Positions 26,107-57,884 of a stretch of DNA of 64,000 bases are shown piece by piece. The stretch covers positions 5,803,089 to 5,867,088 of the forward strand of contig CM026431.1 in NCBI GenBank assembly GCA_014871385.1, in the 5' to 3' direction. The notes below the pieces were generated by a model. That model searched no databases. It was not told the DNA's origin and saw only the letters and a list, made by a program, of their open reading frames with translations. The stretch comes from Ceratodon purpureus. Its lineage: Eukaryota; Streptophyta; Bryopsida; Pseudoditrichales; Ditrichaceae. How positions within the stretch are numbered: position 1 is the first letter of the stretch; each line of letters begins with the position of its first letter. The translations under genes and the position numbers were made by a program.

Positions 26107-27737
26107 TTTCTGAGTTAAAGGATTAGAATTGAGGGAGAGAATTCACCCTCTTCATGTGAAATACTTCTCTTCTCAAGGCCAGTTTACACTTTAATGCAGG
26201 GATCGCATCTCAATAATAACAGATGCAGAAGCAGCCATGAGCCTCATCTAGGGTATCTTGAAGGCTCTTTCTAGTTCGTTTTAGCACGGCAACCGGGGTT
26301 GCATTTCCGTGTAATCGAGTCTTGAGGTGTAACTAAATTGGTTTTGTTACAACTGCCATGTAATAAGATTACAGATCCGCACTCAGTAATTCTTCTACTA
26401 TCTGTGCAGGTTGTCTAGCTAGTGCTGGCAGATATAGACCTCACTCTTTGAAGCTTCGTAGCAAGTCAGAATTCAATTTAGGAGAAGGTATTAGAAAATA
26501 GGTAGACATCAGTGCAGTAACCTAATTTTTTTAGTTTTCAACTAGTCACTCGGTATAATTAGTCTGTAAGAAAAATTGCTATCAACTTCAGTAAACTTCA
26601 AGCGCTCCTTAACCAGTGTGAAGCATCGCCTTCACTGACAGACACACATCCCTGATGTCGTCTTCCACTAAATGTGTAATGCTTTGTAGATCAGCAATTC
26701 AGCATCAATCTACCAATCCTCAGTAGTACTAGTGAACAAGCGAGTGCTAGTACGAGGTGTACAGTGCAACAAGCCATACATAACAAACCGTGTGCAGTAT
26801 TCTCATGTACAGCAGTATGCTTCATTTGTAGCGGTCACGGGGAAGTTTGGACGGATTACCCTCACATCAAGAAATTCTCAGCAAATTTTTTGTTACCCAA
26901 AGGAATTAGACGTAACGACCCAGTTACCGAACAGTAATCCGTCCAAAGTTCCCTGTGGTTTAGCACCGTAGGGGTGTCTGTATTTGGGCAAGAGTTACGC
27001 CTTAAAACACTGAGGCCATTATTGCTAATTTGCTATGTCTCAATGCAGAGGAGGAAACACTCCGGAGTCGGGCACCGCCTGACCAGGCTGGCAACCACAT
27101 CCACCTGAGCACAAATTCAAGGCCCTCCAAAGGTGATGGAATATTCACTCCAAAGTCTTAAATGCACTAAATATACACTTCACTGAGGACCAGTTCTCAT
27201 CCTCCTTCTACTTGCCCATGTTTTCAACAGTGGGCAACTTCCCATGAGACCCTGATCACCTCCCACTGGCAGTACTGGTTCTTCTTCGAAAATTCTCGGA
27301 GGCCACTGTAGCCTTGTGGGTGTTGGGACGTAGTCGTCGTTATCAAGCCAGGACGTGCACAACTCGTCGCCCAATCAACACGCCTACGCGCAGCAGCCAG
27401 CTCTAGTTTGTCAGTGGCACTAGGCTCAAAGCGCGTCTCCGCTCAACACTTTCCAGCTTCTCACAGGGCTTGCGAAGTGCTCCCACCTTCTCCAGGACCC
27501 ACTACAAAAGACCATCTTCACTTCTCCGGTCCTCATCAAGGTTACTAGCTTCTCTTCTCTTCAACTGCAATTATTGGTGACTCTTCGCTTCTTCACTCTT
27601 CTTCTACTAAGATTTGGAACCAGGATTGCAGGATTTGGACCTGAGTACTGACGGAGACCTGTAAAGGAGCACCTTTTTGGCAAGGATACACTGAGTGAGA
27701 TACACGGTTTGACAGAGGTTTGGGGCGGCACTTCACG
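26107..27737. other. Intergenic region between PMEI-like and pectinesterase genes
   Basis: The first part is the PMEI-like 3' UTR. No further gene is seen. The last few hundred bases, with CT-rich tracts near 27480-27600, are probably the pectinesterase promoter and 5' leader. Confidence 0.45.
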
Positions 27738-29617
27738 ATGGGGAAGTGTTGTTGCTTGGTGTTCATTTTAATTGTAGCTATGGTGATTGTGGGAGTGTCA
27801 ATTGGCGTCCCACTTGCTGTCAAGAAGGCCAAAGAGACGGCGAACAACGTGAAGCAGGGCGCTGCCGACGCCGCTTGTCAGGCGACTTCGTATCCAGCGA
27901 CTTGCAACCAGACTCTTGCGGGAGGGAATTACACAGCGGACTCGAAAGGGATGACGAAGATGTCTTTGATGAGTGCAGACACGGGCGTCAATAATACTTT
28001 GGACTACGTTATGTTCCTGAATGGGACGAATCCCAACGTCACTGCTGCGGTGGAGGTGTGCGTGGAAGTCCTGGGGCTGTCGCAGGAGCAGATTGAAGCA
28101 GCTGCGGCCGCACTTGATTCTTTGAACGCGACCACTCGGCAGCAGGCAATGGATGACATCAAGGCGTGGATGAGCGCCGCTATGGAACTGCACACCACTT
28201 GCATTGATGCGTTTTACGATGTTAGTCCTGGGGATTGGCAGTCGCTCCAGCAGCACTCTAACCACACCGACCAGCTGTTCAGCAATGCTCTGGCTTTCAT
28301 CAACGCCATGGCTGCCTACGGAGACGACATCACGCAGTGGAAGCCCACAGGGTTCAGCTTGCCCAGCAGTGTGGATCTGTCCGACTTGTCCGGTTTGCAC
28401 ATTCCCCCAATTCCTGGCTTTGGCAACCGAAGGCTGCTCTCGTCACGAAGTGACTGGGTGAGTGAATCGGACAGTCTTCCTGCTTGGATGGACACCCAAA
28501 CGCAGCGCCATCTCTTGCAAACTACCTCGTATGATGTCGTCGTGGCGCAAGATGGGACAGGGAACTTCAAGACGATTCAGGCAGCCGTGGATGCGCATAA
28601 GGTGAACAATCAACGATTGGTGATATATGTCAAGGCAGGGATTTATAACGAGCAGGTGACTGTGCCGAAGAAAGCGAAGTTCTTGACAATCATTGGAGAC
28701 GGCGACTCTACTGTTATCACGGGGAGCAGGAACGTGGCGTTGATGAAGGGGATGACTACCTTCAAATCCGCAACTCTAAGTATGCTCCTCGAAAATCCTC
28801 TTGAATTGCGTTCTGTTTTCCATAGTTCTGCAATTTGATGTTCTGATGACCCACTTGATTTTTCATTTTTTAGCTGATACTAGACTACTCCTCCGAGCTG
28901 AATTCTGATGATTTTCGTTGTTCTTGTCCTGCAGTTGTCCAAGGGGAAGGATTCATTGGCAAGTCATTCAGAGTGGAGAACACTGCTGGAGCAGCTGGCC
29001 ACCAGGCCTGCGCGTATCGTGGGACGGCCGACAAGCTTGCCTTCCAAAGCGTGACATTCGACAGTTTTCAGGACACCTTGTATGCACACTCGTTCCGTCA
29101 ATTCTTCCGTGAGTGCACCATCCGCGGCACAGTGGACTTCATGTTTGGAAATGCGGCCGCCTCCTTCCAAAACTGCAACATCGTGGCGAAGAAGACGACT
29201 CTGCTTGGACAGCAGAACACGTACTCGGCACAGGGAAGGACGGATCCCCATCAAAGTACGGGCCTCGCGTACCAGAACTGCACCTTTGACGGAGAGGCCT
29301 CTTTGAAGAGCAATACCACATATTACAAGACGTTTCTGGGCCGGCCATGGAAGGCTTACTCAGTGTGCGTGATTATGAAGTCGCAGCTGATGGCCCATAT
29401 CGATCCCACGGGATGGTTGCCATGGAACGCAAGCACCTTCGGGTTGTACACTTCGTACTTCGCAGAGTATGCGAACACCGGTGCGGGCTCCAGCCTCAAC
29501 CAGAGAGTGACGTGGTCGCACCCGATCACTTCCGCCAGTATTGCGAACAAGTACCAGGCAAACAGTTTTGTGCAGGCGAGCAGTTGGGTGAGCGTTCCGT
29601 TGTCAACTACGTTGTAG
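27738..29617 (+). CDS. Pectinesterase (pectin methylesterase) with PMEI pro-domain
   Basis: Two exons (27738-28779 and 28935-29617, joined A|TT) encode 574 residues. The enzyme demethylesterifies homogalacturonan in the cell wall. Residues 4-30 are a hydrophobic signal anchor. The PMEI pro-domain (about 47-200) has the first Cys pair in CQATSYPATC and a second pair later. A linker follows with RRLL and RHLL, the usual subtilase (S1P) processing sites of group 2 PMEs. The catalytic beta-helix (about 262-574) carries GIYNE, HQACAYRG (the QAVALR position), FQDTLYAHSFRQFFREC, GTVDFMFGNA and FLGRPW. The two catalytic Asp residues, the Gln residues and the Arg of LGRPW are therefore present. The ATG at 27738 was chosen; the preceding in-frame codons lack an ATG. 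The gene appears intact and sits 1.6 kb downstream of its PMEI-only paralog. Confidence 0.95.
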
Positions 29618-39594: not shown

Positions 39595-39621
39595 GGGCAC
39601 TTGGTCTAGTGGTATGATTCT
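39595..39621 (+). pseudogene. tRNA-Pro(UGG) 5' half, severed by the LINE
   Basis: GGGCACT (39595-39601) is a seven-base acceptor strand, followed by TG and GTCTAGTGGTATGATTCT, the D arm of a plant tRNA-Pro. Its acceptor pairs perfectly with AGTGCCC at 51282-51288 on the far side of the LINE, showing that the two pieces were once one gene. The A box TGGTCTAGTGG is intact at 39602-39612. The fragment runs straight into a T tract at the element's left end, which would act as a Pol III terminator. Confidence 0.9.
39603..39621. repeat. Target site duplication, left copy (19 bp)
   Basis: GGTCTAGTGGTATGATTCT is identical to 51226-51244. It lies in the D arm and the start of the anticodon stem of the tRNA-Pro gene. 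Confidence 0.92.
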
Positions 39622-40140
39622 TTTTTTTTCATGATTCAGCTTCCCCCCAAAACTTGAAACGCTCCGTAATTCCCGGGCGCACGGAATCTTCCGCCGCCGG
39701 AAATTAGGTCACGATTTTTCTAAGTGATGTGCATGACTTTAGCTATAATATCGTCTGTTAGCGAGGTGATTATCCCTCAGGGATCACGCTCATTCAAAAT
39801 TCAGTCACTTCCAAGCAGTATCGAGAGAGAGTGATTACGTTTTGTTAGGACAGGCAGTGAGGATGCTTTAGATTACTCCGCTTTTGCGACAGTAGACCAG
39901 AGCAGCAGAATCTCCGACCGATGTTATACGAGTAGAGTATGCGATACGAGTGTAGAAGCTTTTGGGATTATTAGAGAAGTTTAGTGAAGCCGCCAGAGAT
40001 TATTAGTGTATTAACACTAATACTTTCCTTAACCAGTTCACTCAGGACCAAGGGGGTGTTTCCACAGTGTTGGTTTGGTTCACCACCTGCGTTGGGAGTT
40101 AACAGTAGATACGTGTAGTTACCAAGGTAGAGCTTCCGAG
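39622..40140 (+). other. LINE 5' leader / internal promoter region
   Basis: About 520 bases precede ORF1. It begins with T8 directly after the target duplication and has no long plus-strand ORF before the ORF1 start at 40141. A LINE must carry its own promoter here, but I recognise no specific box. Confidence 0.6.
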
Positions 40141-43100
40141 ATGAAAGAGACTTGGGAAGCGTCACCAGAGAATCTCAGCATGCAAGGACGACCGATGGAG
40201 CCGGCTCAAGTGGAGGTAGAGCCGGAGAAAGTCGATCGGGTTTACCTGGAGGCTTACCGACAGGCGAGGAAAGAACCGCGATTCATATCGGCGGTAGGAG
40301 ACATCTTCGCCGACATCATGGACGAAGTAAGATTTGAAAGGCAGGAGGTAGCGCTCAGTCTGGAGAGTGGCAACAGGCCACTACCGCGATCACGTCTGCG
40401 GTGGGAGGAAGATGCGGGCCTCCGCCTACTTCAACAACTACCAAGATCGGCGGTGCCGCCAGTTATTCAGGCCAGGAGCTACCTAGACAACCTGGCTAAT
40501 TACCACTCTTACATGAAGGAGCAGCAACGCCTACCTTCAAGAGGACGGCGCTTGGGACCTAGCGACTTCACTACGGTTCAGGCTTTTCTCTCAACACTAC
40601 CGGACGATTACATGGACGACCCCATAGACACGTCTAGGAAGGCCAGAATGTTTGAAGAAGCGCGGGCCGAATACCAGATAGTAATGGCGCCTCAGGGAGG
40701 GTACCCGGAGGCAAGAGACCCTTTACAGCCGGGGGACTTTCTCGGACTGGCCTGCGCTGCAGAGGGCGCTCCCGTAAGTCTCCAACAGCTCCCGGAGGGC
40801 GGTCAGCTCCCGCGTATCAACACAACAACAAACACATCGTCAACACCAGGATTAACTCCAGAATCAGCAAGAACAGACATGGATACATCGTCTTTGCCTC
40901 AGACCCCGTTAGCCGGCGGGATCAACCTCGACGATTTAGGTAAGTGCCGAACCAATACTGAAAAACAATTGACAGACTCTAACACTACTTGCACTCCTAG
41001 AGAGGAAGAGGTTTCACAGGTTCCAGAGAAGAGCAATACCATACCTGACAGTACGCCCGAGGAGCACGGAGGCGAGATAGAGCCGACACAGATCAACCTC
41101 TCGGCAGACCTGCTAGCCGCGATCAAACTCAGCCTCACACACGCCGACACACACGTCCTCATCGGACATGTCCAGGGAGTGAACCCTAACCATCATGAGT
41201 TATTTGATTGGGCTCGTGATACTTTACATGAAACGTTTGAGTCTCTTGTACTTAAAGGCCAGGGCTTCTTTGAGGCCCAGTTCTCCTCTGCGGTGGGTAG
41301 GATAGAGGCGCTCACAAAAACCTCCTATGCGTATCAAGGGAAACCAGTCTTTTTTAAGATCTGGTCACCACATTTCACCCCAGAAACATTCAAGGACAAG
41401 GACAAGGACCCGGCTCCTGAACTCCGATATCCCATCTGGATGCAAATCGTTGGACTTCCTGGTATCCTCCGCAATGAGCAATTCCTCAGGGAAGTGGCCA
41501 GCCAGCTTGCGGAGGTCATCACCATTGAGGACTCCAACCTATATCGAGCCAGAGTTTCAGGACCACGGATTCGGATCCTGATTTCTAACCTGGCCGACAT
41601 GCCAAAGAAGATAACACTTCCTCGACTGGATGGCCCAGGGGTGGTGACGTACAAAGTGGACTATAGTGGACTTCCAAACCAATGTAGCCGATGTAGGTCC
41701 TGGGATCACATGGTGAGCAACTGTACAAGACTCCGAATACAAGATATCCGACAGAAAGGGGGGGGCGCGAAAAAGAATCCAAACACAGCCACTACTCCGG
41801 TCCCCAAAGCAACCAACAACACACCGAAGAGCAACAACAGCCAGAAAACAACCTCATCCCATAAAACGGCAACGAATAGGGATTTGGAAAAAGGAAAAAC
41901 ACAGGCAGACACGGCCTCAACATCCGAGGCTCAAGGCAACACACAAAGCCTCCCTCAAGCATCCACAACACCAGCCATTCAGCCGGAGAAACCTATCCCT
42001 AACCCGAGTACCCATCAAACAGAGAAATCTCCCAACAGAATGGTCACAGCAGAACCTACCTCCAAGGGGACCGATACTCCCCAAACTCAAAGGAGGGCAT
42101 CCCCAACAGAAGATCAGGACACTCCAATGGAAAACAACGATGCCCCAGAGGAACCACATGCCCTACTCCCAGAAAATGTGCCCTTACCCGAATCGGACAA
42201 CGAGGGGGAGGAGTCGGAGACGGAGACCCTGGCACAAACCCCGATAACGAAGGAAGAGGAGGAACAAGTAGCAAGCAACGGGCTGGCCTTAATTATCAAC
42301 AACTCGGCCTCCCCTAGTCAACCAGAACAACAAGGAACCCCCAGGTCGACACCAGATACAGACGGAGGAAATCAAACACCGACCCGGATGACCTCAGAAG
42401 AACCCGACTATCAGGTAAACACCCATTTCATTTGGAACTCTACTCCTTGGGGTGGGACAGCTCTAGGAGATGTTAACCATGACTCAACAAGTTCAGAAAC
42501 CACATCGACTAGTGTGCCTACTGCATCGCAACAAGATCCAGCAGCAGCAGCAGCAAGCCCACACAACTACGTATGGAACCAGGGCAAGCATAATGCCAAA
42601 GGAAAAGGAAAAGGAAAAGGAAAAGCAAAAAGAGCCACTCAAGAGTTGCCGGCCCCGGAAGGAGAAACAACAACAACAGCGACGAAGAGGACTTACCGGT
42701 CATCGGACCTGTCCAGCAGGTTCCTTGCGACGATTGGCATCAGCAACATACCGGAGACCGCAACACTCCGAGGGACCGTCATACCGGTTTTCTATCGGTA
42801 TGAAGGTAAGATTGGCTGTTATTCCTTTTTGTGTCAACGGAAGAATTATTACAATAGGCCGCTCTGTTACATACCCGTCACAGAGCTGTCCATTGTAGGC
42901 AACCAAAACCCCGGTACTATCTTTACCCGACAACAATTAGTGAACGACGTTCACTTGGAACTGGAAAAACTTGTTAGCAATTACAACGAACATACGCACG
43001 CGCTAACCAGTTGGGACAACGCCCTATGGTGTTACTACTGGACGGTGATTGATCAGAACACACATGTGGTTCGAATCATCCCCCTGCTCAGAACCGAAGG

Positions 43101-43401
43101 AGCGGAGATGAGACTTACCAAACCCGGCAAATACTCTTGGAAGGTATTGCCTATGATCCTCGCTGACACGATCCGGGAAGACCCGGAGCCGCGTCTTGTT
43201 TACCACCAGAGTGTCGCCAATAGCTGGGATGCAATACTGGGGGCTGAGGCCCCAGAGTATTCCCCTCAATCTCCCCAAAAACCAGTCCTCAAGAAAGCCT
43301 GCACATTCCATAGGAATGTGCCTGCCGAAGAAGACATTCTTGACTCCGCTCAGCCGGAGAGTCCCACCCCTGTCGCCCCCCTAGATGGTGGTGATACCTA
43401 A
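40141..43401 (+). CDS. LINE ORF1 protein (DUF4283 and CCHC zinc knuckle)
   Basis: This is the nucleic-acid-binding ORF1 of the LINE, 1086 residues from the first ATG (40141); the frame is open from 40075 but without an ATG. Domains: an uncharacterised folded N-terminal region (about residues 30-210, rich in charged helices); a Ser/Thr-rich linker; a DUF4283-type RNA-binding region (about 335-510: HVLIGHVQGVNPNHHELFDW, FFKIWSPHF, PIWMQIVGLP); and a CX2CX4HX4C knuckle (CSRCRSWDHMVSNC, about 515-528). A long Thr/Pro/Gln-rich disordered tract follows, then a Lys-Gly run (GKGKGKGKAK, encoded by a GGAAAA-type microsatellite near 42599-42627) and a further folded domain (about 850-1040). Plant L1 ORF1 proteins are usually about half this length. 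The stop overlaps the start of ORF2 by 17 bases. Confidence 0.88.
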   Translation: MKETWEASPENLSMQGRPMEPAQVEVEPEKVDRVYLEAYRQARKEPRFISAVGDIFADIMDEVRFERQEVALSLESGNRPLPRSRLRWEEDAGLRLLQQLPRSAVPPVIQARSYLDNLANYHSYMKEQQRLPSRGRRLGPSDFTTVQAFLSTLPDDYMDDPIDTSRKARMFEEARAEYQIVMAPQGGYPEARDPLQPGDFLGLACAAEGAPVSLQQLPEGGQLPRINTTTNTSSTPGLTPESARTDMDTSSLPQTPLAGGINLDDLGKCRTNTEKQLTDSNTTCTPREEEVSQVPEKSNTIPDSTPEEHGGEIEPTQINLSADLLAAIKLSLTHADTHVLIGHVQGVNPNHHELFDWARDTLHETFESLVLKGQGFFEAQFSSAVGRIEALTKTSYAYQGKPVFFKIWSPHFTPETFKDKDKDPAPELRYPIWMQIVGLPGILRNEQFLREVASQLAEVITIEDSNLYRARVSGPRIRILISNLADMPKKITLPRLDGPGVVTYKVDYSGLPNQCSRCRSWDHMVSNCTRLRIQDIRQKGGGAKKNPNTATTPVPKATNNTPKSNNSQKTTSSHKTATNRDLEKGKTQADTASTSEAQGNTQSLPQASTTPAIQPEKPIPNPSTHQTEKSPNRMVTAEPTSKGTDTPQTQRRASPTEDQDTPMENNDAPEEPHALLPENVPLPESDNEGEESETETLAQTPITKEEEEQVASNGLALIINNSASPSQPEQQGTPRSTPDTDGGNQTPTRMTSEEPDYQVNTHFIWNSTPWGGTALGDVNHDSTSSETTSTSVPTASQQDPAAAAASPHNYVWNQGKHNAKGKGKGKGKAKRATQELPAPEGETTTTATKRTYRSSDLSSRFLATIGISNIPETATLRGTVIPVFYRYEGKIGCYSFLCQRKNYYNRPLCYIPVTELSIVGNQNPGTIFTRQQLVNDVHLELEKLVSNYNEHTHALTSWDNALWCYYWTVIDQNTHVVRIIPLLRTEGAEMRLTKPGKYSWKVLPMILADTIREDPEPRLVYHQSVANSWDAILGAEAPEYSPQSPQKPVLKKACTFHRNVPAEEDILDSAQPESPTPVAPLDGGDT

Positions 43402-46400
43402 ATTAACCATGGCCACCCAAAATGTCAGTTGCCTAGGACAAGGCACTGACGGCGTTTGGAAACGCCACGCAATCAGAGACCACTTTAGGCATCTCAATCC
43501 GAGACCGGACATCTTACTGTTACAAGAACATAAATTCTCAGCAAAGGACTGTGAACGCAAAACATCACAGTTAGATTATATGGGTGGCCCTTCCTTCTGG
43601 AATGAGGCCATCTATAATGTAACGAAGAATCGACACAAAGCGGGTACAGCGATACTCCTTTCTAAACGACTAACCTCGTTAGTCAAACAATCAGGTATAA
43701 TTGTGCCTGGTAGAGTGCAATTTGTTACCTTACAACTGAATGCTCATCTTCTGATGGGAGTAATGTGTATTTATGGTTGTAACAAAACCCCGGATAGAGC
43801 TAAGTTATGGGAAGCCATAGCTCAAGCCCCGTTACCACAGGCACACTGGGTCCTCGCAGGCGACTTCAACAACATAGAAAGCCTGGAGGATAAGATTGGA
43901 GGCAGACCAACAACCGGTATGCGGCCATTAGAACAGGCTCATTGGCATGCGTTGCTAATGAAATTCAACCTTTCAGATATGTTCCTCATGCCAGAATTTA
44001 GACATCTTACTAAAAAGAAATTCACCTGGGACAACGGCCTAAAAGGGCCGACACGAGTAGCCACCCGAATAGATCGTATTTACTGCGATCTGACACTGCA
44101 AGCGATAGGAGGCCATTGCGGGGTCTGGCCAACCTTCCGACGCCTCTCTGATCATGCGCCTTACTTTGTGAAGTGGCATGACAGAGATGTCAAAACCCAG
44201 AGTCACCTGCATTTCAACAGGTACCTGTTAGAGACTGATGAGGGTCGGGATATGCTTGGGAAAGCATGGACTGACAGCATAGAGTCCATTCCGGATAGAT
44301 CCTGGCAGGCTAAGATAGCAGCAGCCCTAGAGTCGGTCAAACTGTCAAGTGATGAATACACCAAGAACAGATCGACGAAGTGGCAAGAAACATACGACAA
44401 GGAAATACAGGAAATCCTCGAGGCGGAAGAATACCTCCACACGCACTGGGAGGACGCGGCCACCCGAGACCGAATAGAGAAGGCACAGTCCAAGCTTCAC
44501 GACATCAGGAAAGCGAGATTGGACAAGAGGGTAAACGCCACAGCAGCTAAGTGGACCCGGGTGGGAGATCGCTGCACGCGGGAGTTCTTCGAGTCTTACA
44601 AGGAAAAAAGAAAAAACAACAAAATTAAAGAACTCATCAATCAGGGCAAGGTCCTCCGCACTCAAAAGGACCTCTCCCAGTATGCGACACAGTTTTACAA
44701 GGATCTCTATACGGCTGACCCAGTGGTGGAGGCTAACGAAGCAGCTCGAGCGGTGTGCCTTGCCAGTGTTCCAGCAGTAGTATCAGAGGAGCAAAACATC
44801 GAGCTAACAGCACCCATAGACCTGGAGGAACTTCATCATGCAGTAATGGAGCTGCCCACGCACAAAACACCAGGAAAGGATGGAGTGCCGACAGAATTCT
44901 TCCAGGTTCTCTGGACAACAGTAGGCGAACACTTACTGGCCTTCACAGAGGAAGTTTTTCAATCTGGAGAGTTGGAAGTGCATCTGAACACAGGACTGAT
45001 AACCCTCATTCCGAAGACACAGGAAATAGCATACCTCACAAACTTTCGGCCTATTACCCTGCTTCCGGCCATCTACAAAATCCTAGCCAAGGTACTGGCC
45101 CTTAGAATGACCAGAAATCTCACGGAATGGATAGTTCCCTCGCAATCTGGTTTTGTACCAGGGAGATGTATATTCGACAATATCTACCTGGCTTACGAGA
45201 CCTTATCATGGGGAGAGGAGAGTGACCAACCATTGGTCATGATGCTCCTCGACTTCGAGAAAGCATATGACAGGCTGAGTTGGACCTTTTTAGAAGCGGC
45301 AATGTCAAAGATGGGATTTGACAATACCTGGATCAAGATGGTGCGCTCGCTCTATGCGTCCGGCCGTTCCAGTGTGCTTGTCAACGGTATTGCCGGGGAA
45401 GAGTTCCAAATTCAGAGGAGTGTCAGGCAAGGGTGCCCCCTAGCACCCTACCTGTTCTTAATCGCAGCGAACGTGCTAGCTATGATGCTTCAAGACCCGC
45501 AATACGAAGTCAAAGGGATTGTACTGCCCAACGGAGACCAGGTCTGCTCCTCACAATTTGCGGACGACACGAACCTCATGCTGCACGGCACGAAGGACAA
45601 CCTAATCAGAGCCATGAGGGTCCTGGACCTTTATTGCGAAGGCTCCGGATCCAAACTGAATCTGAAGAAAACTAAAGCAATCTGGGCCAGCGATGACAAA
45701 CGAGAGTGGGAATGGGGGGAAGAGCTCGGAGTGGTCTGGGTTCCGACAGGTACCTCTGTCAGATATCTGGGATTCCCGCTTGGTTTCAAACTCCCACTTG
45801 AGGAATTGGACAACGCGCTACTGCTCAAAATCAGGAATGGAATCAGAAAATGGAGCGAGAAGTTCCTATCCCTAGCGGGACGAACATTGATTGTCAACCA
45901 GGTCATACTGGCCTCAGTATGGTACCTAGCAAGCTGCGCTATATTTTCTAAGACAGCATTACAAAAAACGACAGCGATAGTCAGGGATTACCTGTGGAGT
46001 GGGAAGGCCTCAAAGAAGACCAGGGCTAAACTCCGCTGGACGGTAGCCCAAATACCTATTAGCAAAGGTGGAATTAAGGTCATTGACCCCGGAGCGCAGA
46101 CAAGGGCCCTACTCTCTAAGCTAATGACGAGGGGACTCTGTCCAGACAGAGAACCTTGGAAGGCGTTCATTAAATACAGAGTAGGTCAGATTAACCTTAC
46201 CAAGAATGGACAGTGGCCAGCGTCACAAAGGTGGATGACCCAGCGAACGAAACATCTCAACATCCCGGGGACATCGCTCTGGAAAGGAATTTTAGAAAGC
46301 TGGAGTACACTGCAATCAGGAATCGAGCAAGAACCCCCGCACACAGAAGCAGAGATTAGAAGGGAACCCCTATTTGGGAACAGACTCCTCACATCAACAC

Positions 46401-49051
46401 AAGGACAGCAGTGGGGGCTCAATAGCAAACACAGGTACAAAAGCTGGGCTCAAAAAGGATACAATACCGTAGGGGACATCTGGCACACAGAGAAGCAGAA
46501 GTGGAGATTGCCAAGCGAAATGCGGAAACAGATTGGAGCACACAGAGCAACAATGAAGTCACATCGCAGGCCCCTAATACGGAGTATCCCATGGAAGCCA
46601 AAACAGGAAGCCCCACGGATGAATGAATGGGTTTCTGAAAAGCAACAAGACAAGATGGAGTACGTTTATCACATCCAGGCATGCATCAGGGGGGTGCGTT
46701 GGGCAAAGATTTACAAGATACAGGCCAACGATAGACTGATAGAACATCTCGAAGGCATTACAGAGCTCCCCAACAGAAAATATCAGGAGGTACGAGTAGT
46801 TACCCGGAAAGGAGTCAACGGACCCTTCGAAGACTACAACCCATCGGAATCGCCAGAGGCAGGTAGAACCCTCTGGCTCTGGGAGAGAAACTTCCTCAAA
46901 GATATGGACTGGGATCCAAAACAGTGGTCCTGGAAACCATTCTCAGGAGCACCCAGGCTCAAATTCTTCCAATACACGGTAAAGAGGGGATACAGGATCC
47001 ATCTGGAAAATAACAATGAAATAATGTGGTTTAAGCAGGCAATGAAGGATTTGGGCTATGCCAATAGAGAGCAAACCACATTTTTTCAGAGGTTATGGCA
47101 CCAATGGAAACCACGCAAGATAGCAATGATGAACTGGCTCACCCTAGCAGGTGGCCTCCCCACGGGGTCATGGAGGAAGAAGATAGGCGGGGAGGGCCAC
47201 TGCCGTATCTGCAATGACAGCAGTATCGAGGACACGATACAACATTCGTTAGTGGATTGCCCGCATCTCAGAATTATATGGACCAGGTTCCAGGCGTTAA
47301 GGCAATCCTCTACTCTCGAAACCTACTGCGAGAACTGGCCAGACCACATAACAGGAGGAGTGGATCCTCCGGGATCAGAACCCATCCACGAGAGCTACAA
47401 GTGGGATACGGCGGGCAGAACGAGGGTAGACCTCAACACCCCGTGGGACCTACTGAGGTCAGCTCTCCTATGGAACATTTGGTGTCAAAGATGTGCTTTC
47501 GAGATACGACAAGAGAACTTCCACCCGGGACTAGCCTTATACCAGGCATGGCGGACAGTGATATATATAGGCATGGAAGCATTTCGGGACATCAGGAGAT
47601 ATCCAAGGAAAGAAGATAAAAAACACGAGATGGAAGAAATATTTTATCAAATTTGGACACAGGACGGGATATTCAGCAAGATCCAGGGTACGAAGCTACA
47701 GTGGCACCTATTGCCACCAGCAGTGTACCTCCCGCAAGGGATGGCCTCACATATCCCCCAGTCACACCACATTCCGACAGAGGAAGACGAAGAACCCCGG
47801 GACGCCTGTGAAGCAGAGAGAAGAGCAGAACAAGTCCTTCAGGAAGCCATACAGGAGCTCTTTCGACAGTCTTCAAACCAGCCTAGGGCGTATCGCCCGG
47901 CACAAGGAAGACGACAAAGATCCACATACAAACAACTTGTATGTAGAAGCAGTACGACAACTCGCCCAACACAGGCTGAGTGTTCCGCGGAAGGCGGCAG
48001 ACGGCCCAGGCGAAGGAATGCTCAGACAAAAAGTAACACCACCCTCAGTATCTTCTGCACCCCGGCTGCTCCAAAGACGGGGGGGAAAAAACAACAGAGG
48101 AAACGGGAGCCAAAAAAGAAGAAAATACATCACACAGGGTTCTCCAACCCGGCAGTAGAAAAACAGAAACAACGTGAAGAGAGGACCTTAAAGCGCCAAC
48201 AGGAGAGGGAAGGGAAAGGTATGGATGGTGCTGCAGACACAAGAGGACCTTCAGGCACGGGTGGAGGTAGAGGCAAGGATAGGGGGAAAGCCCCAATGTA
48301 TCCTCAAGGTGATGGAGCGTCGACCAGCAGACCAAAACCAACCAGTAGACCCAAGATGAAGGCTTACAAGAAACACAGACAACCAGAAGGGCCAGCTCAA
48401 AAGACAGAAGAAGCAGCGAACACGAGAACGAAACCAGTAAGCAGACCTAAGATGAAAGCTTACAAGTCACATCCGAAGCAAAGGAGACCAGATCAGACTC
48501 AACCAGCAGGAACGGGGATCAGAGGGGGGCAGGAAGGAGTAGGGCCGAGTCTTGGCGCAAGACATAACGAGGAAGAAGATACAGGACTTGGCAACAGTCA
48601 CACCGAGAATGGGCAGGGTGTAGAGAATCCATTTGCGGTACCTCATAGCAGAAGTAAACCAACAGCCAGACCAAAACAAAAAACATATAAAAGAAAACCA
48701 GTGGAGCCAAAGGAGGGAGAGGATGATAGTCAGCAGGATGAAGTACCTCTACAGGCGAGGGAGGTTAGAGTCGGGGGACCAAGGCTGCGCAATCCTCTAG
48801 GACATTACACAGCAGGCGGAGTCTACCCTGCACCTCCGTCGCCCTCCACAAGAGACAGAGAACAACAACAGGTCAGTAACTTCATGTCGCACTGTGGACT
48901 TTGCAACTTGGGAGAACATATCATAGATATACCAAACCATACACCATTCACTCCAAGGTTTGAGAACGAGAGAACGGAAGAGTGGTGGGCAGCGGAGGAA
49001 AGGTTGCGAGAAATACAGGAAGAGATGGAGAAACATAGCCAACAAAGATGA
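43385..49051 (+). CDS. LINE ORF2 protein: APE endonuclease, reverse transcriptase, zf-RVT, long C-terminal extension
   Basis: This 1888-residue enzyme performs target-primed reverse transcription. The APE-type endonuclease occupies about residues 10-260, with catalytic Glu48 in LLLQEH, GDFNN around Asp160, RIDRIY, and SDH at 255-257. The reverse transcriptase (about 480-780) has LITLIPK, FRPITLL, GFVPGRCIFDNIYLA, LDFEKAYDRLSW, RQGCPLAPYLF and the catalytic FADD at 725-728. The zf-RVT zinc domain is near 1272 (HCRICNDSS, HSLVDCPH). I see no RNase H motif. Beyond about 1480 is an extension of ~400 residues that I do not know from plant L1. It is Lys/Arg-rich, holds three copies of a [S/A]RPKxKxYK motif, and ends with CGLCNLGEH-IIDIPNH, a possible C-C-H-H zinc site. 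A second ATG at 43409 (MATQNVSC) could be the true start. All key catalytic residues are present. Confidence 0.93.
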   Translation: MVVIPKLTMATQNVSCLGQGTDGVWKRHAIRDHFRHLNPRPDILLLQEHKFSAKDCERKTSQLDYMGGPSFWNEAIYNVTKNRHKAGTAILLSKRLTSLVKQSGIIVPGRVQFVTLQLNAHLLMGVMCIYGCNKTPDRAKLWEAIAQAPLPQAHWVLAGDFNNIESLEDKIGGRPTTGMRPLEQAHWHALLMKFNLSDMFLMPEFRHLTKKKFTWDNGLKGPTRVATRIDRIYCDLTLQAIGGHCGVWPTFRRLSDHAPYFVKWHDRDVKTQSHLHFNRYLLETDEGRDMLGKAWTDSIESIPDRSWQAKIAAALESVKLSSDEYTKNRSTKWQETYDKEIQEILEAEEYLHTHWEDAATRDRIEKAQSKLHDIRKARLDKRVNATAAKWTRVGDRCTREFFESYKEKRKNNKIKELINQGKVLRTQKDLSQYATQFYKDLYTADPVVEANEAARAVCLASVPAVVSEEQNIELTAPIDLEELHHAVMELPTHKTPGKDGVPTEFFQVLWTTVGEHLLAFTEEVFQSGELEVHLNTGLITLIPKTQEIAYLTNFRPITLLPAIYKILAKVLALRMTRNLTEWIVPSQSGFVPGRCIFDNIYLAYETLSWGEESDQPLVMMLLDFEKAYDRLSWTFLEAAMSKMGFDNTWIKMVRSLYASGRSSVLVNGIAGEEFQIQRSVRQGCPLAPYLFLIAANVLAMMLQDPQYEVKGIVLPNGDQVCSSQFADDTNLMLHGTKDNLIRAMRVLDLYCEGSGSKLNLKKTKAIWASDDKREWEWGEELGVVWVPTGTSVRYLGFPLGFKLPLEELDNALLLKIRNGIRKWSEKFLSLAGRTLIVNQVILASVWYLASCAIFSKTALQKTTAIVRDYLWSGKASKKTRAKLRWTVAQIPISKGGIKVIDPGAQTRALLSKLMTRGLCPDREPWKAFIKYRVGQINLTKNGQWPASQRWMTQRTKHLNIPGTSLWKGILESWSTLQSGIEQEPPHTEAEIRREPLFGNRLLTSTQGQQWGLNSKHRYKSWAQKGYNTVGDIWHTEKQKWRLPSEMRKQIGAHRATMKSHRRPLIRSIPWKPKQEAPRMNEWVSEKQQDKMEYVYHIQACIRGVRWAKIYKIQANDRLIEHLEGITELPNRKYQEVRVVTRKGVNGPFEDYNPSESPEAGRTLWLWERNFLKDMDWDPKQWSWKPFSGAPRLKFFQYTVKRGYRIHLENNNEIMWFKQAMKDLGYANREQTTFFQRLWHQWKPRKIAMMNWLTLAGGLPTGSWRKKIGGEGHCRICNDSSIEDTIQHSLVDCPHLRIIWTRFQALRQSSTLETYCENWPDHITGGVDPPGSEPIHESYKWDTAGRTRVDLNTPWDLLRSALLWNIWCQRCAFEIRQENFHPGLALYQAWRTVIYIGMEAFRDIRRYPRKEDKKHEMEEIFYQIWTQDGIFSKIQGTKLQWHLLPPAVYLPQGMASHIPQSHHIPTEEDEEPRDACEAERRAEQVLQEAIQELFRQSSNQPRAYRPAQGRRQRSTYKQLVCRSSTTTRPTQAECSAEGGRRPRRRNAQTKSNTTLSIFCTPAAPKTGGKKQQRKREPKKKKIHHTGFSNPAVEKQKQREERTLKRQQEREGKGMDGAADTRGPSGTGGGRGKDRGKAPMYPQGDGASTSRPKPTSRPKMKAYKKHRQPEGPAQKTEEAANTRTKPVSRPKMKAYKSHPKQRRPDQTQPAGTGIRGGQEGVGPSLGARHNEEEDTGLGNSHTENGQGVENPFAVPHSRSKPTARPKQKTYKRKPVEPKEGEDDSQQDEVPLQAREVRVGGPRLRNPLGHYTAGGVYPAPPSPSTRDREQQQVSNFMSHCGLCNLGEHIIDIPNHTPFTPRFENERTEEWWAAEERLREIQEEMEKHSQQR

Positions 49052-49295
49052 AACAATCCGGGCAACAACAAAAGGCCACAAAACGAGTAAGAAGAAAGCG
49101 CGAGTCGCTGTGGGCAAGAAACAGGGGAGGGAGGGAGACACGGGGATATGGGGCTGAGCCGGGGCTGGAGGTGGTTTCCCCGCTGAGAGAAAAAAGAGAG
49201 AGAAGCAGACAGAGAGAAAAAAAAGAGAGAGGACAGGATAGGCTCACCTCCCACGCGGCTGGAGCAGGACAGCGGCAACACGAGACACACAGGAG

Positions 49296-49314
49296 CCCCC
49301 CCCCCCCCCCCCCC
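49296..49314. repeat. Poly(C) tract, 19 C
   Basis: This is an uninterrupted C run in the LINE 3' region. Its length is prone to sequencing and assembly error. Confidence 0.8.
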
Positions 49315-49627
49315 AGAACAACACATCAAACCCCAAACCCCATGACAACAACAACAACACAGGACAGGCAGGTGCTCATCTAGTACATCGTATAGAAACC
49401 CTAGATTAGCGCAACCAGGTCCCACGTACAGTAGACGGCAACCGCTTGACCCTGACTCAAGCTCCTAGAGGTCAGGTAGAGTAGAAACATCAGGTTTGAG
49501 TCTTCTCATTTAGAATATTCAAAAGATTACAGAGTCAGCCATGAGGCTTAGTCTTTCCGCGGTGTCTCTCTCCTCTCCCCCATATGTGGGGTACTCTATG
49601 TATCCGCACATGGGCCGGAAAAGTAGT

Positions 49628-49651
49628 AAAAAAAAAAAAAAAAAAAAAAAA
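49628..49651. repeat. Internal poly(A) tract, 24 A
   Basis: This lies 577 bases after the ORF2 stop. It could be a former 3' end of the LINE or a template-encoded tract. A purine-rich GAGAGAAAAAGAGAGGG segment follows. Confidence 0.8.
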
Positions 49652-49726
49652 GAGAGAAAAAGAGAGGGATCGCCCCGTCGGTAACAAGGGCTAACCTAGG
49701 CTCTCTAAGTACTAAGTCAAACTTGC

Positions 49727-50347
49727 TTAGTCGGAGTCGCGGGTGGTGAAGGAATTATAGGCACTGCCGAGACTGGAATCGTCGGAGGCAGGTGAGAGAT
49801 ACCCTCCAAGGCGGTAACGTATCACTTCCCGTCCGGAAGCGGTCTCGGAGTACTCTTCCTCTTCGGCCACGGATTCTCCATCGTCATCGGCTTTGGAAGC
49901 ACTCACGTCTGCAGCAAGACAGGATACCCCTCCGGCCATGGGGACTTTGTGGAAGAAGGCAGGATAGGGCAAAGAGAGGGGGTTGTCCTCAGAGGGAACA
50001 TCTTTAGCAGGGACAGTTGGAGCTTTGACAGGAGGGACCGGCGCAGGGTCTTCGGCCTGGGTGGGTGGTGCCTTTTCGGCGGCATCACTCACATAGATTG
50101 GATCCGCAACGCTGGTGCCATGAGAAAGCAGCTCATGCTGGGCTCGCAAGAAGGACACAAAGGGAATACCTGAAGCAACTCCGAGCAAAAGTATCTCACT
50201 CCGGATCTCCTTGGTCCATGTTAACTCGTTCGAAAGGCTCAGAAGTTGAGATATTGCGGGGATATCGGGATAGACTTCAGCGGTGGAAGACTGGCGAAGA
50301 TACACTTGATACAACCAGCGCAGGAGTAAGGTCCGATCGGTCTCCAT
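49727..50347 (-). CDS. Antisense ORF in the LINE 3' region, 206 aa, unknown
   Basis: This open frame on the strand opposite the LINE starts with METDRTLLLRWLYQVYL. The first ~90 residues look folded, with hydrophobic/charged helical periodicity (ISQLLSLSNELTWTKEIRSEILLLG). A Pro/Ala/Val-rich linker (about 90-125) and an acidic, Ser-rich C-terminus (GESVAEEEEYSETASG) follow. This ordered-then-acidic arrangement is more protein-like than a random frame. I recognise no family. It could be an accessory LINE gene, part of a second element inserted in minus orientation, or fortuitous. Confidence 0.4.
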   Translation of the reverse strand: METDRTLLLRWLYQVYLRQSSTAEVYPDIPAISQLLSLSNELTWTKEIRSEILLLGVASGIPFVSFLRAQHELLSHGTSVADPIYVSDAAEKAPPTQAEDPAPVPPVKAPTVPAKDVPSEDNPLSLPYPAFFHKVPMAGGVSCLAADVSASKADDDGESVAEEEEYSETASGREVIRYRLGGYLSPASDDSSLGSAYNSFTTRDSD

Positions 50348-51058
50348 GACGACAGGATTGGCACAAGAGCTCTACGAAAGCAGGGGCAGAAGACTGAGCT
50401 GAGAAGGAGCACAACATCGGAGAAAGAGAGAAGGCAATCTATACCAGCCACAGGAGCCGCGGAGGAGACGCAGACAACCAGAGGATGAAGATTCACCTCA
50501 ATCGGAAACAATTCAAGGGTCACATATACAACCAGGTGCGATGGGACGGGAAAAGTAATGAAGGAGCCCAGAACGCCGGCACTGATCTTCTTCGAAGGAT
50601 CTACAACGATTCGAGAAATCAAGGCCATCATACTCCAGGATTCAGCTGAATTCAAGACAAGCGTAAGGACGAGCATTACAAGAGAAATTCAACGGGAGTC
50701 GCGATACTCCGAGATTACAACACCAGCAGGAAGAACGGGAAGGAAAGCCTTAGCAGGAGAAGGGCTTCAAGCGAAACGAAGACCCGGGGGGGAAAAGGGT
50801 GCTTCGCAGGAAAATTGACAGAATCGAGAAGATCGGGGTTGCAGCTGCGCGTAGGGCAAGGTTAACTTAGCAAGTCCCTTGGGGGACAACCTTGATCCCC
50901 TCACCATTCATTGTTGCATGATTTTGGTTTTGATTTCGCTGGATTAGTATCGAGTCCGGGATATCTCTAGCATTCATAGCACAGATTTGTATCATTAGGT
51001 TTATTCATTGCAGATGTACTTTGTCTTCGAGTGGTTCGCTTCAGGGGCAGTTAAGTCC

Positions 51059-51218
51059 CAGACCAGATAGTTTGTCTGAAAACCGGAAGGGGGTGACCCC
51101 CTCCAGACCGTGACAGGGGAACTTTAAAGTTCTCCAGAAAGTAAAAGCTACGCTTTACTTGGCAGACCGGGTAACTCCGGTCTGTCTGTATCCGATTTAC
51201 TTATTAACCCCGGTGGGG
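51059..51218 (+). other. Run of stem-loops at the LINE 3' end
   Basis: Consecutive hairpins visible by eye: CAGAC/GTCTG (51059-51078); GG-GGGGG/CCCCC-CC with a TGA loop (51085-51104); GGGGAAC/GTTCTCC with a TTTAAA loop (51116-51135); AAGTAAA-GC/GCTTTACTT with a TAC loop (51139-51160); a perfect 8-bp CAGACCGG/CCGGTCTG (51163-51184); and CCCC/GGGG (51208-51218). The element ends seven bases later. Such a structured tail resembles the 3' ends recognised by 'stringent' LINE reverse transcriptases. Confidence 0.7.
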
Positions 51219-51225
51219 ATTTCAC

Positions 51226-51244
51226 GGTCTAGTGGTATGATTCT
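51226..51244. repeat. Target site duplication, right copy (19 bp)
   Basis: This is identical to 39603-39621. It is preceded by C instead of the T found on the left, so the A box here reads CGGTCTAGTGG. Confidence 0.92.
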
Positions 51245-51289
51245 CGCTTTGGGTGCGAGAGGTCGCGAGTTCGATTCTCGCAGTGCCCC
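51226..51289 (+). tRNA. tRNA-Pro(UGG) 3' part, gene interrupted by the LINE
   Basis: The D arm comes from the duplication. Then come the anticodon stem CTCGC/GCGAG with loop TTTGGGT (anticodon TGG), the variable AGGTC, the T arm GCGAG-TTCGATT-CTCGC, acceptor strand AGTGCCC (51282-51288) and discriminator C. The B box (GAGTTCGATTC) is intact and a T5 Pol III terminator lies at 51299-51303. Its native 5' acceptor GGGCACT is 11.6 kb away at 39595. The LINE end offers GGGGATT (51215-51221), which could pair with six of the seven acceptor positions but with three extra linker bases. It is probably a non-functional remnant, though a gene finder may call it whole. Confidence 0.85.
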
Positions 51290-54922: not shown

Positions 54923-57884
54923 ATGGTACGTTGCTTTCTTCTCTTGGGATGAGATGTGGGAGGGGTTGTGTTTGGTGGTGTAGTTATGTGAGTAGTTAGC
55001 GTCTTGTTGTTGGTTTGCGACTAAGAGTATGGTAGTGTTGAGGGTGAGGGGGGTTTATTTTTAGTTGTGCATGTGGGTAGAGTAGGGTGGCGGTTTTTTG
55101 GGATGGTTGGGTAGGCCAGAGAGTTCGGGAGGTCAGTGCTTTTGAATTCGTAGAGGAGCATTTCGTTTGGCTAGTTTGTTGAGTAGATCGGATGAAGAGG
55201 AGGTAATTTTTGACCACAGGGGTGGTAGCTGGTTAGTGACGTTTTTGCTTTCTGTGTGTGGTGATGGGGGATGTATGACGTGAGTTTTAGGCCGTGCTCT
55301 ATTGTATGTGGTGGAGAGTTGTGAGTGAAGTATGAGTTGATCGAACAATTGGCCTTGTCTTGTTCGGGGTTGAGGTTGCCGCTGCCGTTGGTCTTTTGTC
55401 TTAGGACGCGGTTTTGTAAGAAGGATCGGGATGTCTTTTGTGGAAATTTGTGTGGTGATTTCTAGCTTTTGTTCGGTTTCCAGTCTGGTTTCTGCGTGTT
55501 GGTTTTGCAAGTTTGGATGGCAGTGGGTGGAGTTGTTTATTTTGTTAACGCGCTTTTTCGTTCAATTAGGTTTAGTTTCTGTTGCATTGTCTGGATCTGG
55601 TAGCCATGAAAGGGATGTGGGGATAATGTACTGGAAAAGTAGGAGTGTCGGGTGTGTCATTTTTTCCAACAGATTTTGTGGATTTCTAACTGAACGAGCT
55701 CATTGTGTGCAGGCAATCGCACCTAAGAAGATTAGAAAAGCAATTGGTGGTCTGAAGGACCAGACCAGCATCGGTATTGCAAAAGTAGGGGTAGGTGGTA
55801 CCAAAGCACCGGACCTCGACGTTGCCCTTGTGAAGGCAACGAGCCATGACGATTTCTTCGACGAGAAACATGTTTCAGAAATCTTGCACCTTACTGCATA
55901 CTCCCGTGGCTACGTGAATGCATGCGTCACCAGTTTGTCTAAGAGGTTGTACAAGACACGCGATTGGCATGTGGCATTGAAAAGTCTCATGCTCACGCAC
56001 CGTCTTCTCCGTGATGGCGATCCCAGCTTCGAAGATGAATTGATTCATACCTCTCGAAACGGTCGGCGCATTCTCAACCTCTCAGACTTCAAGGATGAAA
56101 CGCATTCTAATGCGTGGGATTACTCTACATTTGTTCGCACTTATGGGTTTTACCTCAACGACCGCCTAGATTGTGCAGTACAATTCACAGGCAAGAGTAA
56201 ACCCCGTCGGAGTAGGGGTGGCGAGAGAGGCGGAGATAGAGGCAGCGAGAGAGGCGGAGATAGAGGCAGCGAGAGAGGTGGAGATAGAGGCAGTTATAGG
56301 GGTAGAACTGCATACAGCAAGTCTCCTGTGAGGACGACTTACAAAGACTTACCGGGTGCCACAAGCCGGGGTTCCCGCGCTCGCTCTCCTGATGCGCGTG
56401 GTTATGCATACAGTGACGACCGCCGGCATAGTAACTATGACGGTGGGCTGTCGCCACGGTATGGGGACAGGTCTCGCCGCAGAGATGATTGGGACGAGAA
56501 GAAAGAGGAAGATGTTGATGACAATGTGCCCATCAAGGAGATGGCCGTCAAGCAGCTCTTGGAGAAGATGCCCGCTATGCAGAGACTGATGGAACGGGTG
56601 ATCAATTGTCGACCCGCAGGTGTGGCAAAGACAAACCGCTTGGTTCAGCATGCGCTGTACCCCGTCATCAAGGAGAGCATTCAGCTCCACAGGGATATCT
56701 CAGATGGTTGTGCTGTTCTTCTTGAGCATTTCTTTGATATGGAGCAGAAAGAGAGGGTTAAGGCCTTCGAAATCTACTACACGTACTCCAAGCAAGGCGA
56801 TCAGCTACACGAGTTTTTCAAATTGTGCAAGCATCATGGCGTAGGTCGATCTTCCGAGTACATTGAAATCGAGCCTGTGCCCCAGGAGCAGCTGGACAAT
56901 CTGGAGGATTACTTGAGGTCGAATGCTCCTAATCGCAATAAGAGTAAAAGCCCTGAGCCCGAGCCTCTGCAGATTGAGTACAGACCAGAGACACCTGAGC
57001 GAGAGCCGGAGCCTGAACCTCGCGCTTTCACACCTGAGCCTGCACCGGCTCCCGTGGAAGAACCTCCTGCCTTCGTCGCTGAACCAGAGCCGGCTCCGCC
57101 TCGGCAAACGGAAGGAGGTAGATTTAACTGCCCAATTTATACCCTTTTTCAGTTGGGATTCCGTTTTTGTGTCTGTTCTCATCGATCTCTTACTCACGCC
57201 AGATATTATTATCTTGTTGTTGCAGATTTATTGGACCTTGATAAGGCAACAATCTCGGCCGATGACCATAGTGACCGACTTGCTCTTGCGCTTTTCTCGA
57301 CTTCAACCTCAACGACAACCACTAATTGGGAATCTTTCAATTCGCCAGAAGACGAACAGAATGCTCTTCAACTTGCCAATGCCTCGGAAGGTAAAGCTGG
57401 TTGGGAACTCGCTTTAGTGTCGTCTGTGACTAATATATCGAAGCCAATGCCTGCCAACAGACCACTGGCTGGTGGGTTTGATCCTTTGCTCTTGGACAGC
57501 ATGTATAGCCAGGGTGAGGTTCTGCAGAAGCAGGCTGTATCTGCTGTTCCGGCAGGGAGTGCAAGCAGCGTGGCAATTCCAAACCGACCTGCTAGTGCTT
57601 TCCTCGCTTTGCCTGCTCCTCCTGGTGGAATGCCACTGGCAGTGAACGGGGAGGATCCGTTCGCAGCTTCAGCCGTTGTTCCCCCTCCTGCATATGTGCA
57701 GATGGCAGATCTTGCTACTAAGCGGGAGTTGTTGACGCAAGAGCAGGTTATGTGGCAGCGGTATCAGATGGAAGGCATGCGGGGTGAAGCTGGGTTCCAG
57801 AAGCTATTCAACAACCCTTACGCAGGCATGCCTGCTCCGACTCCCATGATGTACCAGAACCCTTACCAGGTCGGTATGCCGTAG
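54923..57884 (+). CDS. ANTH-domain clathrin assembly protein (AP180/CALM family, PICALM-like)
   Basis: Three coding exons: 54923-54925 (only the ATG), 55713-57117 and 57226-57884, giving 688 residues. The protein recruits clathrin and cargo at PIP2-rich membranes during endocytosis. The ANTH domain (about residues 1-150) starts MAIAPKKIRKAIGGLKDQTSIGIAKV, the Lys-rich PIP2-binding motif, followed by FFDEKHVSEIL, WHVALKSLMLTHRLLRDGD and FVRTYGFYLNDRLD. An Arg-Gly-rich insert (about 155-200) contains repeated GGDRGSER units. A second helical part of the fold (MQRLMERVINCRP, EHFFDMEQKERVKAFEIYYTY) follows. The tail has Glu-Pro-rich repeats and endocytic motifs: GDLLDL at the second junction, FDPLLL, and NPY twice near the end. 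The first exon was placed because ATG|GTACGT joins exactly to GCAATCGCACCT. An open frame runs upstream of exon 2 inside the intron, but it does not give the family N-terminus. Confidence 0.94.
56216..56297 (+). repeat. In-frame 24-bp tandem repeat in the ANTH gene
   Basis: Units of GGCGGAGATAGAGGCAGCGAG plus AGA, about three copies with few changes, encode repeated Gly-Gly-Asp-Arg-Gly-Ser-Glu-Arg. The copies are nearly identical at DNA level, suggesting recent expansion within the coding exon. Confidence 0.75.

What the first reader, a model, noticed from the sequence alone, without database searches (positions are those of the whole stretch)
39595..51289. LINE inserted precisely inside a tRNA-Pro(UGG) gene
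The sequence shows a tRNA 5' half (39595-39621) and 3' part (51226-51289) separated by 11.6 kb. Their acceptor strands GGGCACT and AGTGCCC are perfectly complementary, and they share an exact 19-bp duplication covering most of the A box. tRNA-associated non-LTR elements are well known in amoebozoans (Dictyostelium TRE), but those insert beside tRNA genes. I do not know of a plant L1-type LINE with an insertion inside the tRNA body. One copy cannot prove targeting, but tRNA genes are tiny targets. If repeated elsewhere, this would be a tRNA-specific plant LINE.
Basis: partly seen in the sequence, partly recalled or inferred. Interest (0 to 1): 0.9.

Follow-up and report, generated by a model that had tools for sequence, protein, structure and literature searches.

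The report
Moss LINE inside a tRNA gene
An intact 11.6-kb jumping gene of the plant L1 type sits exactly inside a proline tRNA gene of a moss, and its structured RNA end is completed by the first letters of that tRNA, which suggests, but from one copy does not prove, that it aims for this site.

Summary
A tRNA-Pro(UGG) gene of a moss (a flanking gene is 95% identical to Ceratodon purpureus) is split by an 11,604-bp LINE (39622-51225), flanked by an exact 19-bp duplication; joining the flanks restores a tRNA-Pro. Both ORFs are open: ORF1 has DUF4283; ORF2 has an L1-type endonuclease, RT and zf-RVT. The RT tree puts it among green-plant L1 elements. New here: the 3' end has no poly(A) but a strong multi-hairpin fold (z -6.4), closed by a 9-bp stem whose outer five pairs use the first five target bases (GGTCT). 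Among all 4096 possible downstream 6-mers the real one ranks third for stabilising this fold; none of 400 control positions gains as much. The deduced nick (TAGACC/AAGT) is not T-rich. I read this as a sequence-specific LINE. This is inferred from one copy: the host assembly could not be searched, so chance insertion is not excluded. LINEs specific for tRNA genes are reported outside the L1 clade (NeSL-1_TV, LIN15_SM, LIN25_SM); I found no plant L1 example.

The parts
39595..39621 (+). 5' piece of the tRNA-Pro(UGG) gene: acceptor 5' strand GGGCACT, T8, then the first copy of the 19-bp duplication
39603..39621 (+). target-site duplication, left copy, GGTCTAGTGGTATGATTCT
   Evidence: D2, 100% identical
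39622..51225 (+). LINE insert, 11,604 bp, 5' end to the left
39622..39637 (+). 5' junction: T8 (T9 counting the last base of the duplication), C, then ATGATTC, a repeat of the end of the tRNA half; weakly above chance
40141..43401 (+). ORF1 from its first ATG, 1086 aa: DUF4283 and a C-rich knuckle-like stretch (CSRCRSWDHMVSNC)
43385..49051 (+). ORF2, 1888 aa: APE-type endonuclease (res 26-257), reverse transcriptase (542-798), zf-RVT (1227-1299), long basic C-terminal extension with three RPK-x-K repeats and a last CxxC...H motif; overlaps the end of ORF1
49052..51225 (+). 3' UTR, 2.17 kb, no terminal poly(A)
51105..51230 (+). 3'-terminal RNA fold closed by AGACCGTGA (51105-51113) with TCACGGTCT (51222-51230); bases 51226-51230 belong to the tRNA/duplication. 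Strong inner hairpins 51116-51135, about 51139-51160 and 51161-51186
51226..51244 (+). target-site duplication, right copy
51226..51289 (+). 3' piece of the tRNA-Pro(UGG) gene: D arm, anticodon arm (TGG), T arm, acceptor 3' strand AGTGCCC, discriminator C

Best explanation
This is a recently inserted, probably intact, sequence-specific LINE of the plant L1 clade that uses the D-arm region of tRNA-Pro(UGG) genes as its target. Proposed mechanism: the ORF2 endonuclease nicks the bottom strand within the tRNA gene at 5'-TAGACC/AAGTG-3'. The freed ...AGACC-3' end pairs with GGUCU at, or just past, the end of the element RNA, which is otherwise held in a multi-hairpin 3' structure. Reverse transcription starts there without a poly(A) tail. 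The top strand is cut 19 bp further on, giving the 19-bp duplication. Shown: the tRNA split, duplication, open ORFs, lack of terminal poly(A), the predicted fold and its completion by the target. Inferred: the order of events, that the RNA carries the target bases (because its source copy sat in the same site), and that other copies share this site.
For: Exact 19-bp duplication and restored tRNA. Both ORFs open. The match to L1 ORF2p runs over endonuclease and RT, res 22-878, E 2e-54. No poly(A) at the 3' end; RNA 51085-51231 folds at -69.7 kcal/mol, z -6.41, 0 of 200 shuffles as good. The closing stem has 4 pairs in the element and 5 using target bases. In 20,000 draws of random window targets the fraction doing as well was 0.0008 (about 0.001 after allowing for draws skipped inside the element but kept in the denominator), and 0.0015 of 20,000 random genomic junctions. 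Target GGTCTA ranks 3 of 4096 6-mers for stabilising the last 126 nt of the element (-56.2 against -44.2 kcal/mol without target). 0 of 400 control positions gained 12 kcal/mol. The primer end TAGACC has no T in its last four bases, unlike the TTTT/A of L1 (PMC3649969, passages). AGACC occurs 3 times in the last 250 nt, against 0.23 expected. R2 gives a precedent for 3' homology annealing to the nicked bottom strand (PMC10499050, passages).
Against: One copy only; no second insertion of the family was seen. The structure tests were chosen after the stem was noticed. The 5' end shows only a weak target echo (ATGATTC; 0.021 and 0.0105 in two nulls), no known RNA family and no more structure than shuffles (183 of 200 fold at least as well). 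Relatives with readable DNA (a sister lineage) show no tRNA: 0 tRNAs in 20 loci by ARAGORN, 0 Rfam matches in 18; 6 of 20 show an A-rich 3' end. Plant L1 elements with structured, stringently recognised 3' ends are described without mention of target specificity in the passages I saw (PMC3747384).
Confidence: 0.6

Rival explanations
1. Chance: an ordinary plant L1 with a structured 3' end, not target-specific, that happened to land in a tRNA gene.
For: Only one copy is known. Among many LINE insertions a few must hit tRNA genes by chance (reasoning, not computed). The sister lineage shows no tRNA association in the loci scanned. Plant L1s with stringent 3' stem-loops are described (PMC3747384, passages).
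Against: The element's terminal RNA fold is completed by exactly the target's first five bases (rank 3 of 4096; 0 of 400 controls). The nick is not T-rich. There is no poly(A).
Confidence: 0.25
2. Microhomology only: the element RNA itself ends in ...CACGGUCU and primes wherever a nick exposes AGACC-3'. The site is then chosen by about 5-6 bases, not by the tRNA gene, and tRNA-Pro is one of many genomic matches.
For: The same stem data. L1 priming is known to depend most on the last four primer bases (PMC3649969, passages).
Against: AGACC is frequent (58 in 64 kb on the + strand), so landing inside a tRNA would again be chance. Not separable from the main reading with one copy.
Confidence: 0.11
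3. Nested or reversed insertion: the T8 run at the left end is the poly(A) tail of a minus-strand insertion (another element, or an antisense transcript), and the LINE sits inside or is carried along.
For: Read on the minus strand, A8 directly precedes the duplication. An internal A24 run at 49628-49651 could be the end of a nested L1.
Against: No exact repeat of 8 bp or more links the 80 bases at and after the internal A-run (49640-49719) to the 5' region 39600-40200. The 19-bp duplication brackets the whole 11.6 kb. ORF1 and ORF2 lie in the + orientation with a structured + strand 3' end.
Confidence: 0.04

Closest known systems
Plant L1-clade LINEs (DUF4283 ORF1, APE endonuclease, RT, zf-RVT)
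   Same: Domain set and RT tree position next to fern-associated (inferred) and Chara elements
   Different: No terminal poly(A); long ORF2 (1888 aa) with basic C-terminal repeats, a feature shared with its closest relatives; insertion inside a tRNA gene
NeSL-1_TV (tRNA-Pro), LIN15_SM (tRNA-Arg), LIN25_SM (tRNA-Glu)
   Same: Non-LTR elements reported as specific for tRNA genes, one of them for tRNA-Pro (PMC4640811, section 10 read)
   Different: Treated there with the restriction-like-endonuclease clades (the position of NeSL-1_TV is not well supported there); LIN families are from planaria, and the NeSL-1_TV host is recalled as Trichomonas. This one has an APE-type endonuclease and an L1-type RT in a moss
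R2 (28S rDNA)
   Same: Structured 3' UTR recognised by the protein, and 3' homology able to anneal to the nicked bottom strand (PMC10499050, passages)
   Different: Different endonuclease, target and clade; the R2 sequence match is to the RT region only
Dictyostelid TRE5, TRE3, NLTR-A, NLTR-B
   Same: Non-LTR elements tied to tRNA genes
   Different: They insert beside tRNA genes (TRE5 and NLTR-B about 50 bp upstream, NLTR-A 2-6 bp upstream, TRE3 about 100 bp downstream), not inside (PMC5006619, passages)
Dada DNA transposons; Dewa
   Same: Dada inserts at fixed sites inside tRNA genes; [quoted passage not shown]
   Different: Dada is a DDE DNA transposon; Dewa is not inside the tRNA body

Membership tests
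Plant L1-clade LINE | ORF1 with DUF4283; ORF2 with APE endonuclease, RT, zf-RVT | tested here: met
   DUF4283 1.3e-08, RVT_1 2.4e-29, zf-RVT 6.2e-09, Exo_endo_phos 1.5e-08
Plant L1-clade LINE | RT groups with green-lineage L1 elements | tested here: met
   27-row clade 100/98; joined to a fern-associated clade at 99/97, then Chara at 95/88 (midpoint root); 66 of 88 candidate rows used (54 of 68 proteins, 12 of 20 loci; the rest had no match over more than 300 aa of the RT query)
Plant L1-clade LINE | 3' poly(A) tail (usual in flowering plants) | tested here: not met
   right end ...GGGGATTTCAC; [quoted passage not shown]
Target-specific LINE | Independent copies at the same position of the same gene | not tested
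   The genome search did not answer in 25 attempts; no other copy in the window
Target-specific LINE | Element end matched to its target sequence | tested here: met
   (tests devised after the stem was seen)
NeSL / R2 type (restriction-like endonuclease) | RLE instead of APE | tested here: not met
   APE-type N-terminal endonuclease
Dictyostelid TRE type | Insertion at a set distance outside the tRNA | tested here: not met
   insertion within the tRNA body
tRNA-targeting Dada DNA transposon | DDE transposase, no RT | tested here: not met
   reverse transcriptase present; no transposase among the matches listed for the two element ORFs

The most novel reading that the evidence does not exclude
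A plant L1-clade lineage has switched from poly(A)-primed insertion to sequence-specific insertion inside tRNA-Pro genes, with an RNA 3' end whose fold includes the tRNA's own D-arm bases, convergent with R2- and NeSL-type elements.
Probability: 0.55. Interest if true: 0.8.

Novelty: new variant of a known kind. Interest (0 to 1): 0.62.

Why it matters
If confirmed, this would be a plant L1-clade LINE with strict specificity for a tRNA gene body, showing that target specificity arose inside an APE-endonuclease lineage of land plants. It would give a testable case of how a LINE replaces poly(A) priming with target-matched RNA ends. It also points to a possible natural site-specific insertion machine that works in plants, with a multicopy target likely to tolerate loss of single copies.

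Tried and rejected
Nested L1 ending at the internal A-run 49628-49651: no matching duplication at the 5' side. Ribozyme at the 5' end (R2-like): no Rfam match up to E 5 except an lncRNA model at E 3.7, far below its gathering score; the 5' end is not more structured than shuffles (z +1.29). Known RNA family at the 3' end: only the tRNA. A tRNA rebuilt by the element end: acceptor pairing is poor. More copies in the window: none. Relatives in viral contigs: none confirmed in two protein scans (37 and 23 stretches matched a pattern, 0 encode a relative); 0 matches for the 3'-junction pattern. The species' own other copies in the protein collection: best identity 44%. ORF1: one partial relative, P0189, 40% over 21%. 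Literature: the listings of searches (25 of 32 papers shown; 15 of 27; 0 papers; 15 of 141) showed no plant LINE specific for tRNA genes; the held library lacks most subscription papers. Priming literature: search 74. Passages of PMC10886601 and PMC8869645 were also seen and added no plant LINE. One notebook entry says the A-rich motif is in 6 of 19 loci and places the A-run at 49629-49652; searches show 6 of 20 and 49628-49651.
Full report
WHAT IS THERE. The window holds a tRNA-Pro(UGG) gene cut in two by 11,604 bp. The left piece is 39595-39621 and the right piece 51226-51289; both carry the exact 19-mer GGTCTAGTGGTATGATTCT. Joining the flanks in a script gives a complete cloverleaf, which ARAGORN calls tRNA-Pro(tgg). 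In the filled locus only the right piece is called, with a poorly paired acceptor made from element bases, and Rfam matches it only from model position 9. The gene is therefore disrupted. Its A box (recalled consensus) is complete in the left piece, which lacks the B box, while the right piece keeps the B box and all but the first base of the A box.

HOST. A neighbouring ANTH-domain protein (55374-57881) is 95% identical over 86% of the query to a Ceratodon purpureus protein; two unnamed proteins follow (71 and 66%), then named Sphagnum hits at 47-60% (120 of 386 hits listed). The window is thus from a moss in or near Ceratodon (taxonomy: Ditrichaceae). The species itself is not named by any tool.

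THE ELEMENT. ORF1 (first ATG 40141, end 43401) has DUF4283. ORF2 (43385-49051, 1888 aa) has an APE-type endonuclease, a reverse transcriptase and zf-RVT. By sequence it matches human L1 ORF2p over residues 22-878 (E 2e-54), but R2 proteins only over the RT region (best E 2e-14). In the L1 alignment the GDFN, ID and SDH blocks of the endonuclease and FADD of the RT are kept; that these are catalytic is recalled. The long C-terminal extension has three RPK-x-K repeats; 13 of the 14 relatives I looked at carry a related R-x-K-x-K/R-C-x-F-G-P-like repeat, most of them RPK.

RELATIVES. A protein search gave 67 hits; 26 proteins without organism name (P0002-P0027, from ENA, JGI and a third source labelled lgn) align at 39-44% identity over 57-100% of the query. 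The RT tree (66 rows) puts the window element with all 26 in one clade (100/98). It joins, at 99/97, a clade of 11 contigs from a Trichormus MAG plus P0028, then Chara braunii at 95/88, with angiosperm L1s outside under a midpoint root. Trichormus is recalled as the cyanobiont of the fern Azolla, so I take the MAG's 18 LINE contigs (L001-L013, L015-L019) as fern contamination; this is inference. Of 20 loci scanned, 6 show a shared 3' motif TAACTAATGA followed by an A-rich tail; the motif is absent from the window. None of the 20 has a tRNA by ARAGORN, and none of the 18 has an Rfam match. Many of these contigs are short and may not reach an element end. As far as it can be seen, the sister lineage looks like ordinary A-tailed L1.

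THE 3' END. The window element does not end in poly(A) but in ...CCCCGGTGGGGATTTCAC. The RNA 51085-51231 folds at -69.7 kcal/mol, z -6.41, with 0 of 200 shuffles as stable. Several hairpins are closed by a 9-bp stem, AGACCGTGA (51105-51113) with TCACGGTCT (51222-51230). The last five bases of the 3' arm, GGTCT, lie beyond the element in the duplicated tRNA. Three tests bear on this. First, only 0.0008 of 20,000 draws of random window targets (about 0.001 after correcting for draws skipped inside the element but left in the denominator) and 0.0015 of 20,000 random genomic junctions give a stem this long on both sides; a stem reaching 5 bases into the target with any element part occurs in 0.016 (about 0.02 corrected). 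Second, with the last 126 nt fixed, the real target 6-mer ranks third of 4096 and adds 12 kcal/mol; with a 226-nt tail none of 600 random 6-mers does as well. Third, at 400 control positions none gains 12 kcal/mol from its real next six bases (largest gain 9.5), and at one of the 400 none of 150 random 6-mers was as stable as the real one. These tests were devised after the stem was seen.

THE 5' END. After T9 (one T belongs to the duplication) comes CATGATTCAGC, repeating ATGATTC from the end of the tRNA half. This is weak: 2.1% of random draws (about 2.6% corrected as above) and 1.05% of shuffles do as well. The 5' end is no more structured than shuffles and shows no ribozyme family.

HOW IT PROBABLY WORKS. 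For an element in + orientation the first nick must lie on the bottom strand at the left edge of the duplication, 5'-TAGACC/AAGTG-3'. That end has no T-tract, unlike the TTTT/A used by L1 (PMC3649969, passages). Its AGACC can pair with GGUCU at the end of the element RNA if the RNA ends in, or reads through into, target sequence. R2 offers the model of a structured 3' UTR with optional 3' homology annealing to the nicked strand (PMC10499050, passages). So the best reading is a sequence-specific LINE whose source copy was also flanked by GGTCT, most simply by tRNA-Pro. The nick position follows from the duplication; the pairing, the read-through and the specificity are inferences.

WHAT IS NOT SHOWN. 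No second copy was seen. Chance insertion of a stringent-type plant L1, a kind described in PMC3747384 (passages), and priming by five-base microhomology remain open.

COMPARISON. tRNA-gene-specific non-LTR elements are known: NeSL-1_TV for tRNA-Pro, LIN15_SM for tRNA-Arg and LIN25_SM for tRNA-Glu (PMC4640811, section 10 and passages). Dictyostelid elements insert beside tRNA genes (PMC5006619, passages). Dada DNA transposons insert inside tRNA genes, and Dewa is listed for a tRNA-Leu spacer (PMC3706591, passages). I found no plant L1-clade case in the listings of searches. The element works like a target-specific LINE at its 3' end and is by descent a plant L1; membership among target-specific LINEs needs a second copy.

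Noticed in passing
window 43385-49051 (ORF2 residues about 1650-1775): Three RPK-x-K repeats (SRPKMKAYK, SRPKMKAYK, ARPKQKTYK) and a terminal CxxC...H motif in the C-terminal extension; 13 of 14 relatives checked carry RPKxKCxFGP-like repeats. A possible nucleic-acid-binding tail of this LINE clade.
   Followed up: partly
L001-L013, L015-L019 (whole loci): 18 contigs of a GTDB 'uncultured Trichormus' MAG encode plant L1-like LINEs: likely fern (Azolla) contamination of a cyanobacterial bin (the Azolla link is recalled).
   Followed up: partly
L014 606-2948: A contig in a Streptococcus UBA6071 MAG encodes a LINE closest to flowering-plant elements (Lolium, Vitis, Aegilops): likely plant contamination.
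   Followed up: no
window 49296-49314 and 49628-49651: A C19 run and an A24 run in the 3' UTR; the A-run is not followed by a duplication of the 5' flank.
   Followed up: yes
window 51060-51064, 51105-51109, 51164-51168: AGACC, the bottom-strand sequence of the target at the nick, occurs three times in the last 250 nt of the element against 0.23 expected; one copy lies in a hairpin of its own.
   Followed up: partly
window 27699-29614 and 7585-8394: A pectinesterase gene with PMEI domain and a Myb/SANT-like DNA-binding domain: ordinary plant genes.
   Followed up: no
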